Origin: Xanthomonas hyacinthi
GTDB lineage: Bacteria > Pseudomonadota > Gammaproteobacteria > Xanthomonadales > Xanthomonadaceae
Length of the DNA stretch: 64,000 bases
NCBI RefSeq assembly: GCF_009769165.1
Contig: NZ_CP043476.1
Coordinates: forward strand, 3,789,001 to 3,853,000
Reading direction: 5' to 3'
A model generated the notes under the pieces. It saw only the letters and a program-made list of their open reading frames with translations, searched no databases and was not told the origin of the DNA. The translations under genes and the position numbers were made by a program. Positions 51,016 to 53,772 of the stretch are shown one piece after another; positions within the stretch are counted from its first letter, which is position 1, and every line of letters begins with the position of its first letter.

Positions 51016-53772
51016 ATGGCAACCAGGCAACAGCGTGCGCGCGACGGCGGGCGGGCGCGGAAGCGAGCGGCCACGGTATCGGCGGCCACGGCGAAACCAG
51101 CCAAAGCGGCCGCGCAGGCCGGCCAGGCGCCGCCCGCGCAGCAAAACCCCGCAGCGAAGAAAGCCAGGCCGAAGCAGGCTGTCGCGAAGCCTGACCAGGC
51201 GCAGACCGCGGAAAAGGCCGTCGCTCGGCCGAGCGGGCCGGTGCGGCGCACTGCGGCGAAGACCGCGGCGAGCAACACGTCCAGGGCAGGCGAGTCCAAG
51301 ACGACCAAGCCCAGTACGGCCAAGCCCGGTACGGCCAGGCCGGAAGCCGCCGCCAGGCGCACGCCGTCCGCTCCGCGCAAAGGCAAAACGCGCGCCGCCG
51401 CTGCGGCAAGCGGTCCGGCGCCCGCGCGCACGGCCCGGCCCAAGGCCACCGGCGAGGGGTCGTTGGCGCAAGGGCAGGCGCGCACGGTCGTCTATGTCCA
51501 TGGCATCGGCAACAAGCCGCCGGCCGAGGTGCTGCGCTGCCAGTGGGATCGCGCCCTGTTCGGTCGCGAGATGGGCGAGCGCACGCGCATGGCGTATTGG
51601 GTCAGCCGCGAACGCTATCCGTCGCCGGAACCGGGCAGCTGCCAGGATCAGGACCGTGGCCCGGCGCCGAACCAGGCCGAGCAGCGCGTGCTCGGCGCGC
51701 TGGGCGTGGTGCCGCAACTGGCCGACCTGGGCCAGTTGGCCGATACGCTGGCCGGCAGCGACGCGGAGCGCGCGTACCTGCAGCGGTTGCTGGACGAAGT
51801 GCAGGCGGCCGCGCCGGAGGCCGCCGGCATGCATGCGCAAGGTCCGATCGACGCGCTCAACCGGGTGCTGCTGAAGCTGATCTCCGCCGCGCTGCTGCAG
51901 GACGTGCACGATTTCTTCTTCGTGCCGGCGCGGCGCGAGCAGTTGCGCGAGAGCCTGCGCCAGCGCATGCGTGCCGGCGGCGGTCCGTTCGTGGTTGTGG
52001 CGCACAGCCAGGGCGCGCTGATCGCCTACGACGTGCTGCGCGAATTCGAGGCCGAAGGCTGCGCCGTGTCGCTGTTGCTGACCCTGGGCGCGCCACTGGG
52101 CCTGCCGGTGGTGCGCAGCATGTTCAAGCAGTGGACCGGCACGCCGAAGCTGCCGTTCCCGGCCTGCGTGAAGCGCTGGGTCAACGTCGCCGAGCGCCGC
52201 GATCCGGTGGCGCTGGACGACGATCTGAGCGATGACATCGCCGACGCGCAGGGGCGCTTCCACAACATCGCCGGGTCGCGGATCAATCCGGATTGGCAGC
52301 GCAATCCGCATTCCGGCTCCGGCTACCTGTCCATCCCCGAGGTCCGCGCCGAGGTGCGGCGCGCGGTGGGGGTCGGCTTCGACCAGCCGATCGCGCATCC
52401 GGTGCTGATCAAGGACCTGTCCGACCAGTTGGAGGCGCACGCGCCCAACTATCGCCATGAAGTGCTGATCGAGCTGCAGCGCCTGCCGGGCGAGCGCGAG
52501 CCGGCGCAAGTGAAGTGCGATCTGGTCGCGGCGCTGCGCGAGCTGACCCAGGCTTCCACTGGATTGAAGGGCGACGTGCTGGACGCGGCGATCGAACTGG
52601 AAGACACGCTGCAGCGCTACGTGTCGGCGCGCCTGACCCGTTTCGAGATCGAAAGCCTGCGCGATCGCTATCGCGGCCTGAGCCTGAAACGGCTGTGGCG
52701 CGACGCCGGCAAGCGTGCCCTGATCTACCAGTCGCGCAGCACCGTGCAGGCCGACGCGGCGCAGGTGGCGTACCGCGCGCTCGGCAGCGGCATCGGCTGG
52801 GCGGTGCTGGACAGCGGCATCGCCGCGGCGCACCCGCATTTCCAGCAGCCGGGCCTGGCCGAGACGGTGCTGGCGCAATGGGATTGCACCCAGCGCGGCC
52901 GCGCGCGCGAACTGCGCCGCGGCGCCGGCGCCGGCTTCGCCGCGCTGGACGGCAACGGCCACGGTACCCACGTGGCCGGGATCATCGCCGGGCAGTGCGA
53001 TGCGCCGCTGCCCGGCGTGGCGCCGGCCACGCCGCTGCGCTTTGCCGGCATGGCGCCGCAGGCACGGCTGTACGGGCTGAAGGTGCTGGACGACGATGGC
53101 AATGGCCGCGATTCGTGGATCATCAAGGGCGTGCAGCAGGCCGCCGAGATCAACGAGCGCGCCGGCGAGCTGGTCGTCCACGGGGTCAATCTGAGCCTGG
53201 GCGGCTACTTCGATGCGGAGAGCTACGGCTGCGGCTTCACCCCGCTGTGTAACGAACTGCGCCGGCTATGGCGGCAGGGCGTGGTGGTGGTGATCGCGGC
53301 CGGCAACGAGGGCCTGGCCTGGCTGGTGCAGAACGATGGGCAGGCCTATCCGTTGAACCTGGACCTGAGCATCGGCGATCCGGCCAACCTGGAGGAAGCG
53401 CTGGCGGTGGGGTCGGTGCACAAGAGCAGTCCGCACAGCTACGGCGTGTCGTACTTCTCCTCGCGCGGGCCGACCGCCGACGGCCGGCACAAGCCGGACC
53501 TGGTGGCGCCGGGCGAGAAGATCGTCTCCGCCCACCACCGCTACGACGTGGACGACCCAAGCACCTGGATGGTGGAGATGAGCGGCACCAGCATGGCGGC
53601 GGCGCACGTGTCCGGGCTGATCGCCGCGTTCCTGTCGGTGCGCCGCGAGTTCATCGGCTTCCCGGACCGGGTCAAGCAGCTGCTGCTGGAGCAGTGCCTG
53701 GACCTGCAGCGCGATCCCTACATGCAGGGCCGTGGCCTGCCCAGTCTGATGCGGATGCTGGGGGCGACGTGA
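51016..53772 (+). CDS. fusion of basic tail, alpha/beta-hydrolase and subtilisin-like (S8) protease
   Basis: A 918-residue protein with no signal peptide or membrane helix. Residues 1-150 are Lys/Ala/Pro/Arg-rich and disordered, like histone H1. Residues about 155-450 are an alpha/beta-hydrolase: VVYVHGIGNKPP, nucleophile elbow AHSQG (Ser331), candidate Asp396 (RRDPVAL) and His432 (NPHSGSG). A helical linker (about 460-580) leads to a complete S8 domain: Asp599 (AVLDSG), His649 (GNGHGTHVAG), oxyanion Asn764 (AAGNEG) and Ser859 (SGTSMAAAH). Both active sites look intact. ATG 51016 follows GGGAG. It stands alone between ssrA and secF. Targets and role are unknown. Confidence 0.85.
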   Translation: MATRQQRARDGGRARKRAATVSAATAKPAKAAAQAGQAPPAQQNPAAKKARPKQAVAKPDQAQTAEKAVARPSGPVRRTAAKTAASNTSRAGESKTTKPSTAKPGTARPEAAARRTPSAPRKGKTRAAAAASGPAPARTARPKATGEGSLAQGQARTVVYVHGIGNKPPAEVLRCQWDRALFGREMGERTRMAYWVSRERYPSPEPGSCQDQDRGPAPNQAEQRVLGALGVVPQLADLGQLADTLAGSDAERAYLQRLLDEVQAAAPEAAGMHAQGPIDALNRVLLKLISAALLQDVHDFFFVPARREQLRESLRQRMRAGGGPFVVVAHSQGALIAYDVLREFEAEGCAVSLLLTLGAPLGLPVVRSMFKQWTGTPKLPFPACVKRWVNVAERRDPVALDDDLSDDIADAQGRFHNIAGSRINPDWQRNPHSGSGYLSIPEVRAEVRRAVGVGFDQPIAHPVLIKDLSDQLEAHAPNYRHEVLIELQRLPGEREPAQVKCDLVAALRELTQASTGLKGDVLDAAIELEDTLQRYVSARLTRFEIESLRDRYRGLSLKRLWRDAGKRALIYQSRSTVQADAAQVAYRALGSGIGWAVLDSGIAAAHPHFQQPGLAETVLAQWDCTQRGRARELRRGAGAGFAALDGNGHGTHVAGIIAGQCDAPLPGVAPATPLRFAGMAPQARLYGLKVLDDDGNGRDSWIIKGVQQAAEINERAGELVVHGVNLSLGGYFDAESYGCGFTPLCNELRRLWRQGVVVVIAAGNEGLAWLVQNDGQAYPLNLDLSIGDPANLEEALAVGSVHKSSPHSYGVSYFSSRGPTADGRHKPDLVAPGEKIVSAHHRYDVDDPSTWMVEMSGTSMAAAHVSGLIAAFLSVRREFIGFPDRVKQLLLEQCLDLQRDPYMQGRGLPSLMRMLGAT

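What the first reader, a model, noticed from the sequence alone, without database searches (positions are those of the whole stretch)
51016..53772. One protein with two complete serine-hydrolase active sites and a histone-like tail
Seen in the translation: 150 residues of Lys/Ala/Pro-rich disorder, an alpha/beta-hydrolase with AHSQG, then a subtilisin domain with Asp599, His649, Asn764 and Ser859. There is no signal peptide, propeptide or secretion domain, although most bacterial subtilases are exported. A basic tail suits binding to nucleic acid or a membrane surface. A predicted cytoplasmic protease joined to an esterase or lipase could act in stress, cell death or phage defence, but nothing in the sequence proves any of these.
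Basis: partly seen in the sequence, partly recalled or inferred. Interest (0 to 1): 0.78.

Follow-up and report, generated by a model that had tools for sequence, protein, structure and literature searches.

The report
Fused lipase-like enzyme and subtilisin zymogen
This bacterial gene makes one protein that joins a lipase-like enzyme to a subtilisin protease with its own inhibitor-like domain, apparently kept inside the cell, and relatives of its two halves sit in enzyme pairs that other bacteria seem to use in conflict systems, so it may be a self-contained, protease-controlled switch; none of this has been tested at the bench.

Summary
Window 51016-53772 encodes a real 918-aa protein with a basic disordered tail, an alpha/beta-hydrolase (ABH) and a subtilase (S8). 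Both active sites are complete and conserved: ABH Ser331/Asp396/His432 in 156 of 156 aligned relatives, S8 Asp599/His649/Asn764/Ser859 in 155 of 155 that cover it. The wrong point: there is a propeptide. Residues ~476-566, between the enzymes, are I9-like by profile comparison of their C-terminal part and by the model. The fusion is one clade in six phyla, not a frameshift artefact. Of 22 close S8 cousins without the ABH, 19 are followed by a separate ABH or metallo-beta-lactamase-fold gene. Stand-alone homologues of the fused ABH have a caspase, CHAT or trypsin-like protease within two genes in 5 of 10 annotated plasmid loci. So both halves have kin in protease-plus-hydrolase modules, the logic shown for nuclease-protease immune pairs (PMC12799240). 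Best reading: a single-chain, protease-gated, lipase-like zymogen. Against mobile defence: in Xanthomonas and Pseudoxanthomonas it lies beside tmRNA, mostly with smpB next, without a sensor gene. New variant of a known kind.

The parts
51016..51480 (+). Basic, disordered N-terminal tail (aa 1-155), A/R/P/K/T-rich, net +27
   Evidence: 96 of 100 measured homologue tails have net charge +3 or more
51481..52395 (+). Alpha/beta-hydrolase domain (aa ~156-460)
   Evidence: Pfam sub-threshold ABH hits; AF2 model; profile match to stand-alone ABHs, 262 columns, probability 100
52006..52008 (+). ABH nucleophile Ser331 (AHSQG)
   Evidence: 156 of 156
52201..52203 (+). ABH Asp396, putative triad acid
   Evidence: 156 of 156; assignment inferred from invariance and order
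52309..52311 (+). ABH His432, putative triad base
   Evidence: 156 of 156; assignment inferred from invariance and order
51667..51846 (+). Variable lid-like stretch of the ABH (aa 218-277) with two low-confidence segments (aa 218-235, 268-277); candidate gate
   Evidence: pLDDT under 50; very variable part of alignment A5; gating role is inference
52441..52713 (+). I9-like prodomain (aa ~476-566), strand-helix-strand-helix-strand
   Evidence: AF2 mean pLDDT 90.4; hhalign to I9-bearing S8 relatives E 1.7e-7, probability 93.8 with the junction; prodomain alone E 1.5e-4, probability 51.8, 31 columns, score 27.3 against at most 14.3 in 50 shuffles; Pfam I9 not reached by the window's own segment
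52711..52740 (+). Inferred autoprocessing zone (aa ~566-575); Lys566 in 156 of 156, Ser573 in 155 of 156
   Evidence: the site itself is inference from the subtilisin layout
52789..53730 (+). Subtilase S8 catalytic domain (aa 592-905)
52810..52812 (+). S8 Asp599
   Evidence: 155 of 155 covering
52960..52962 (+). S8 His649
   Evidence: 155 of 155 covering
53305..53307 (+). S8 oxyanion Asn764
   Evidence: 155 of 155 covering
53590..53592 (+). S8 Ser859
   Evidence: 155 of 155 covering
50516..50867 (-). tmRNA gene ssrA, divergent neighbour, 148 bp from the start codon
   Evidence: ARAGORN; conserved neighbour in 14 Xanthomonas/Pseudoxanthomonas/Lysobacteraceae loci
53896..54945 (-). secF, convergent neighbour in the window; relatives have the smpB side there. 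Name by recall from the translation

Best explanation
It is a cytoplasmic, single-chain zymogen with two enzymes: a lipase/phospholipase-like alpha/beta-hydrolase and a subtilase, linked by the subtilase's own I9-like inhibitor domain. Proposed working: the prodomain keeps the subtilase off; a trigger (stress, invasion or loss of folding) lets the subtilase cut its own prodomain junction near residues 566-575, which separates the two enzymes, and cut the hydrolase's mobile lid, which frees the lipase-like active site; the basic tail holds the hydrolase half at anionic membrane or nucleic acid. Supported by computation: both active sites conserved, an I9-like prodomain, no recognisable export signal, one old fusion, each half related to protease-plus-hydrolase modules elsewhere. 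Inferred: cytoplasmic place, self-cleavage, activation of the hydrolase by the protease, lipid as substrate, tail function, trigger.
For: Complete conserved active sites. I9-like prodomain between the enzymes, so ordinary subtilisin self-processing would split the chain (Foldseek's best hit is ProN-Tk-SP with 487 columns against about 345 for mature subtilisins). No signal-like stretch in 100 measured tails, basic tail in 96 of them. S8 cousins: of the 22 rows of the close S8 clade outside the fused part, 13 are followed by an ABH gene and 6 by a metallo-beta-lactamase-fold gene, every gap 24 bp or less, and one (L046) by a metallophosphatase; patatin lies just upstream in L004 and L044. The fused ABH profile matches ten stand-alone plasmid ABHs over 262 columns, score 358.6 against 21.1 for the best of 50 shuffles; 14 plasmid loci were fetched, 10 had annotation, and 5 of these carry a caspase, CHAT or trypsin-like protease gene within two genes. 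Best solved ABH match by sequence: group XV phospholipase A2, E 5e-4. Precedent: proteases activate partner pro-nucleases in Hachiman, AVAST and Canu (PMC12799240; abstract, section 8 and passages seen).
Against: No enzyme activity, cleavage or toxicity has been tested. Lipase identity is weak: Pfam ABH hits are below cut-off. The window's own prodomain does not reach the Pfam I9 model; a sequence search of PDB with the prodomain profile finds no subtilisin propeptide; the profile match without the junction covers only 31 columns at probability 51.8; the solved pro-forms align over the prodomain only with rmsd near 21 and VIA alignments leave it out, so the inhibitory pose is not shown. The split S8 cousins pair with another ABH subfamily than the fused one, so split and fused forms are parallel, not the same two genes. 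The fused gene has no sensor or NTPase neighbour and sits at a stable chromosomal place in Xanthomonas and Pseudoxanthomonas, which fits a housekeeping role as well. Five of the 10 annotated stand-alone ABH loci showed no protease (L085, L086, L091, L094, L095).
Confidence: 0.45

Rival explanations
1. A housekeeping or stress enzyme of the cytoplasm: the subtilase degrades or trims proteins, as intracellular subtilisins do in stationary phase, and the hydrolase removes acyl groups or lipids from the same substrates. No gating between them.
For: Stable place beside ssrA in 14 of 14 Xanthomonas, Pseudoxanthomonas and Lysobacteraceae-MAG loci by DNA match (ARAGORN calls it in 13 of 14), with smpB within 0.8 kb downstream in 13 of 14; 105 scanned neighbours of distant fused copies share no defence family beyond two members; broad spread with conserved sites.
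Against: Stand-alone homologues of the ABH and S8-only cousins lie in protease-plus-hydrolase modules, some with TIR, CHAT, DNA/RNA endonuclease or WD40 genes, unusual for housekeeping. An interrupted copy exists (L025), so the gene is dispensable at least there.
Confidence: 0.33
2. A self-contained immune or abortive-infection effector: the subtilase is triggered by phage or plasmid invasion and the freed lipase kills the cell.
For: Both halves have relatives in conflict-type loci; PADLOC lists a 'subtilase' model that the protein hits at 235 bits; protease-gated killing enzymes are established (PMC12799240); caspase plus alpha/beta-hydrolase pairing is described in VMAP conflict systems (PMC7159879, passages seen).
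Against: No sensor gene; no place in plasmid or phage records covers 80% of the query (best listed 49%; 40 of 266 and 15 of 39 records were listed); core-like position in Xanthomonas. What system the PADLOC model belongs to was not shown by any search.
Confidence: 0.3
3. An exported or surface enzyme that uses an unrecognised route, as most subtilases are extracellular.
For: Most bacterial subtilases are exported (general knowledge). Three of the I9-bearing Bacillota relatives (L078, L080, L082) show signal-peptide-like N-termini by eye.
Against: No hydrophobic signal stretch in any of 100 measured tails of full-length relatives; the tail is strongly basic; other prodomain-bearing relatives start without a hydrophobic stretch by eye (L071, L075).
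Confidence: 0.07

Closest known systems
Nuclease-protease pairs of Hachiman, AVAST, Lamassu, DRT and Canu (Tuck et al. 2025, PMC12799240)
   Same: A protease (trypsin-like or caspase) paired with a hydrolase effector and acquired by several systems. Six S8 cousins of this protein are followed by an MBL-fold gene; of the two tested, L004's hits LmuA and Avs1a models and L061's hits Avs1a below cut-off.
   Different: Here the protease is a subtilase, the hydrolase is an alpha/beta-hydrolase, both are one chain, and no sensor NTPase is present; activation is not shown.
Caspase plus alpha/beta-hydrolase pairs in VMAP ternary conflict systems (Kaur et al. 2020, PMC7159879)
   Same: That paper says a caspase domain there always has an alpha/beta-hydrolase gene as neighbour; stand-alone homologues of the fused ABH sit next to caspase genes in L087 and L089.
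   Different: Subtilase instead of caspase, fused, no MoxR-vWA or VMAP partner seen in the window. Whether it is the same ABH family as theirs was not compared.
Peptidase family S8, subtilases with I9 prodomain (pro-Tk-subtilisin, Tk-SP, CspB)
   Same: Fold, catalytic residues, prodomain-like domain before the catalytic domain.
   Different: The prodomain is internal, carrying a second enzyme and a basic tail on its N-terminal side; no signal peptide.
IetAS (S8 protease plus AAA ATPase)
   Same: An S8 protease model of PADLOC; weak IetS hits here, best 33.7 bits. That IetAS is an S8 plus AAA ATPase pair is recalled.
   Different: No AAA ATPase neighbour seen; a hydrolase domain is fused instead.
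Intracellular subtilisins of Bacillus and Planococcus (PMC6220982, abstract seen)
   Same: Intracellular S8 proteases with an inhibitory propeptide.
   Different: Their propeptide has a LIPY/F motif, absent from this translation; no second enzyme.

Membership tests
Peptidase family S8 | Asp, His, Ser in S8 order with oxyanion Asn | tested here: met
Peptidase family S8 | PF00082 above the curated cut-off | tested here: met
   153.6 bits against 21.8
Peptidase family S8 | Proteolytic activity | not testable with these tools
   needs purified protein
I9 prodomain | Own segment reaches Pfam Inhibitor_I9 | tested here: not met
   no I9 hit up to E 10 for the window segment or the 21 other fusion prodomains
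I9 prodomain | Profile-level homology to I9-bearing S8 relatives | tested here: met
   E 1.7e-7, probability 93.8 with the junction; E 1.5e-4, probability 51.8, 31 columns without it, all 50 shuffles far below; L073, L078, L080, L082 pass the I9 cut-off, L075 misses by 0.6 bits. The N-terminal half rests on the model alone
I9 prodomain | Prodomain seated on the active site | tested here: inconclusive
   VIA alignments start after the prodomain; Foldseek columns extend over it, but with rmsd near 21 for several pro-forms
Protease-plus-hydrolase conflict pairs | Hydrolase homologous to one that sits beside proteases as a separate gene | tested here: met
   profile match score 358.6; protease within two genes in 5 of 10 annotated loci of 14 fetched
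Protease-plus-hydrolase conflict pairs | Sensor or NTPase gene in the locus | tested here: not met
   window neighbours are GGDEF, tmRNA and secF by reading; no recurrent defence family in 105 scanned neighbours of distant fused copies
Protease-plus-hydrolase conflict pairs | Hydrolase activated by the protease | not testable with these tools
   needs biochemistry
Nuclease-protease pairs (Avs1a/HamM type) | MBL-fold nuclease | tested here: not met
   the hydrolase is alpha/beta type
IetAS | Neighbouring AAA ATPase IetA | tested here: not met
   translations of 44000-62000 read by eye
Intracellular subtilisins | LIPY/F propeptide motif | tested here: not met
   absent from the translation, read by eye
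T6SS lipase Tle3 | PF24322 above cut-off | tested here: not met
   no hit for the window ABH; 24.5, 24.8 and 26.0 bits against 27 in P0182, P0201, P0204

The most novel reading that the evidence does not exclude
A single-chain, sensor-free, self-gated lipase: a widespread bacterial protein in which a subtilase zymogen cuts itself free from, and switches on, a fused membrane-attacking hydrolase, giving programmed cell death or immunity from one gene. It would be the lipase-subtilase counterpart of the nuclease-protease pairs.
Probability: 0.3. Interest if true: 0.82.

Novelty: new variant of a known kind. Interest (0 to 1): 0.6.

Why it matters
If the two enzymes gate each other in one chain, the protease-activates-hydrolase logic lately shown for immune nucleases extends to lipase-like enzymes and to subtilases, and one gene could be cloned and tested without knowing any sensor. 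It would also give a function to a large family that records with a name mostly call 'S8 family peptidase' (5786 of 7997 scored candidates at E 0.001 or better, of which only the best 120 were listed; the rest were not checked for the fusion).

Tried and rejected
Frameshift or misassembly joining two genes: rejected, the fusion is a 39-row clade with full support; two of its rows are not intact fused calls (L025 interrupted, L016 shorter ORF call). Four loci are not in the tree: L020, L045 and L063 (no main gene called) and L068 (no HGTH motif).

Chance active-site motifs: rejected. Mobile defence island: not supported for the fused gene. IetS, CspBA, mycosin and PatA membership: NCBIfam scores far below curated cut-offs, IetS weak. 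Split-operon ABH as the ancestor of the fused ABH: not supported; they share only the nucleophile elbow. Patatin of L004 as a relative of the ABH: no.

Prodomain against PDB sequences: two designed helical proteins at E 0.11 and 0.23, no subtilisin. VIA-align did not align the prodomain in any listed chain. Neighbours of stand-alone ABHs: L091 no PDB match, L094 WD40 only. Neighbours of split S8 genes: of 10 scanned, three were telling (patatin L044, CHAT-TIR L049, metallophosphatase L046) and seven were not (DUF885, P450, DUF1349, a redox/AIRS protein, three without hits). Literature: no paper on this fusion was found; only openly licensed full texts are in that library.

Choice of rows: plasmid ABH loci were picked by me from the listed hits for variety of genus, 14 fetched, 4 without annotation (L090, L092, L093, L096), L085 and L095 alike; not a random sample. 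The 12 I9-side sequences are those S8-only loci whose catalytic motif my pattern found, less L076 (too short); many others did not match the pattern. Of 129 and 125 neighbour proteins listed, 105 and 95 were scanned, the second set without the partner genes; 25 of 41 and 25 of 68 families were shown. Many of the 120 proteins listed look like broken-off ends of fusions; I took only clear stand-alone ones further. In one search the printed stop and smpB gap for L005 and L015 are wrong (a second ORF matched the motif); I used the coordinates.
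Full report
OBSERVATION. ORF 51016-53772 (+) starts with ATG and gives 918 aa. Pfam finds Peptidase_S8 at 592-905 with 153.6 bits and only sub-threshold alpha/beta-hydrolase (ABH) hits. The 120 listed homologues (of 5786 hits among 7997 scored) nearly all cover the whole region, at 92-95% identity in the nearest eight and about 50% in Bryobacteraceae and NC10 bacteria; most named close hits are Xanthomonas and Pseudoxanthomonas.

ACTIVE SITES. Aligning the window protein with the 120 database proteins and 36 genomic fusions (some of them the same proteins), Ser331, Asp396 and His432 are the same in 156 of 156, and the four S8 residues in 155 of 155 that cover them; P0095 stops short. 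Asp396 and His432 as triad members are inferred from invariance and order. The tail is a family trait: of 120 proteins, 19 lacked the anchor motif, 1 had under 5 residues, and of 100 measured 96 have net charge +3 or more (median length 61) and none a hydrophobic stretch above 1.6.

PRODOMAIN. The first AF2 model (residues 151-918, 45 sequences) has mean pLDDT 75.7; the second (residues 455-918, 55 sequences) 90.4. Between ABH and S8 lies strand-helix-strand-helix-strand. The window segment does not reach Pfam I9. S8 relatives do: L073, L078, L080, L082 pass the I9 cut-off, L075 misses by 0.6 bits. Profile comparison of 22 fusion prodomains with 12 such relatives gives E 1.7e-7, probability 93.8, over 58 columns that include the junction to the catalytic domain. 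Without the junction it gives E 1.5e-4, probability 51.8, 31 columns, score 27.3, against at most 14.3 in 50 column shuffles. So the C-terminal half is homologous to I9 by sequence; the N-terminal half rests on the model. Foldseek's best hit is ProN-Tk-SP with 487 columns, against about 345 for mature subtilisins, but with rmsd 21, so the pose is not the same or not right. In ordinary subtilisins the prodomain is cut off by the enzyme itself (general knowledge); here that cut would part the two enzymes. That step is inference.

ONE FUSION, MANY PAIRINGS. One genome scan, capped at 80, gave 78 loci. In a tree of 79 S8 domains the fusions form one fully supported clade of 39 rows, of which L016 and L025 are not intact fusion calls, in Pseudomonadota, Cyanobacteriota, Acidobacteriota, Planctomycetota, Chloroflexota and Hydrogenedentota. 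The 22 remaining rows of the close clade lack the ABH: 13 are followed on the same strand by an ABH gene and 6 by an MBL-fold gene (gaps -79 to 21 and -86 to 24 bp, the most negative probably long start calls), L046 by a metallophosphatase, and L050 and L060 by neither. Patatin genes lie just upstream in L004 and L044, and a CHAT-TIR-receiver gene 0.4 kb upstream in L049. Of the six MBL proteins two were tested: L004's hits LmuA, Avs1a and RTasMBL models in PADLOC, L061's hits Avs1a in NCBIfam below cut-off. Around fused copies, recurrent neighbours occur within near kin (Xanthomonas and Pseudoxanthomonas; Synechococcus and Cyanobium; the two Steroidobacteraceae), and response-regulator genes lie next to L023 and L037; no other cluster recurs next to the gene across families.

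THE ABH HALF. The fused ABH differs from the split-operon ABH: hhalign probability 29, nucleophile elbow only. A profile search found stand-alone relatives, among many fragments of fusions. Ten plasmid proteins of this kind share the triad pattern and match the fused profile over 262 columns, score 358.6, best of 50 shuffles 21.1. Of 14 plasmid loci fetched, 4 had no annotation (L090, L092, L093, L096). Of the 10 others, 5 have a protease within two genes: serine protease in L083 (with TIR genes) and L084 (12 bp away), caspase in L087 (3 bp) and L089 (about 0.2 kb), CHAT in L088 (with a DNA/RNA non-specific endonuclease upstream). The other 5 have none annotated: L085 and L095 a large AAA ATPase, L086 and L094 WD40 genes, L091 a giant unknown. 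The two serine proteases match Spl or glutamyl endopeptidases weakly. By sequence the ABH profile's best PDB match is group XV phospholipase A2, E 5e-4; Tle3 phospholipase hits in relatives are just below cut-off. Lipase-like is therefore a fair guess, not a result.

PLACE IN THE GENOME. In the window the gene is divergent from tmRNA by 148 bp and convergent with secF (name by reading). In 14 loci of Xanthomonas, Pseudoxanthomonas and a Lysobacteraceae MAG (L005-L016, L025, L026) ssrA is beside it in all by DNA match and in 13 by ARAGORN; ARAGORN finds no tmRNA in the other 25 of the 39 loci, including Aquimonas, Silanimonas and Lysobacter. SmpB, named by reading, follows within about 160 bp of the last S8 codon in 11 of the 14, at about 250 bp in L015, 790 bp in L005 and 5.7 kb in L016. 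The window has no smpB match within its 64 kb. So the gene looks like an inherited chromosomal gene there. Nothing links it to trans-translation beyond place.

DEFENCE CONTEXT. No place in plasmid or phage records covers 80% of the query; the best listed cover is 49%. Among 105 neighbours of distant fused copies no PADLOC family occurs more than twice at E 1e-10; among 95 neighbours of split copies none more than once, though DISARM-like and Dpd-like proteins appear.

WHAT IS KNOWN. Kaur et al. 2020 (PMC7159879, passages seen) state that a caspase domain in VMAP systems always has an alpha/beta-hydrolase gene as neighbour; their one mention of 'subtilisin' is beside NucA. Tuck et al. 2025 (PMC12799240, abstract, section 8 and passages seen) show that partner proteases activate pro-nucleases by cutting gating insertions; they mention proteases of other families, and the word subtilisin does not occur in the main text. 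Intracellular subtilisins have a LIPY/F propeptide (PMC6220982, abstract seen). No paper on this fusion was found in ten full-text searches.

VERDICT. Each half belongs to a family that pairs a protease with a second hydrolase, and here the pair is one chain with an inhibitor-like domain in the hinge. I give 0.45 to a protease-gated, lipase-like zymogen in general, and 0.3 to the bolder reading of a sensor-free killing effector; the two overlap. A stable place beside ssrA and the lack of a sensor keep the housekeeping reading alive at 0.33.

Noticed in passing
L004:4879-8099, L057, L058, L059, L061, L064: Subtilase genes followed directly by an MBL-fold gene, on a long separate S8 branch: a possible subtilase version of the nuclease-protease pairs. 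Only two of the six MBLs were tested against LmuA/Avs1a models, both with hits.
   Followed up: partly
L044:6953-10290, L004:3832-6783: Patatin-like phospholipase gene immediately upstream of the split subtilase gene.
   Followed up: partly
L049:1693-4083: CHAT-TIR-response regulator fusion upstream of a subtilase plus alpha/beta-hydrolase operon in Rhodococcus aetherivorans.
   Followed up: no
window 53773-53895: The downstream flank differs from the 14 close loci: secF instead of the smpB side, so a rearrangement seems to end just after the gene.
   Followed up: partly
L025:8992-17494, L016:9323-11314, L013:1829-4114: Copies that look interrupted or start out of register in Xanthomonas hortorum, Pseudoxanthomonas winnipegensis and X. 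populi; described only.
   Followed up: no
L007, L008, L013, L014, L016, L025, L026: The tmRNA tag differs: ANDDNYGSD(F/Y)A(I/L)AA in these, ANDDNYALAA in the window and the other six called, with a longer tmRNA gene.
   Followed up: no
L085:4297-4989, L095:4132-4980: Streptomyces plasmid genes annotated 'serine peptidase' that align as alpha/beta-hydrolases of this family, after a large AAA ATPase and before integrase genes.
   Followed up: partly
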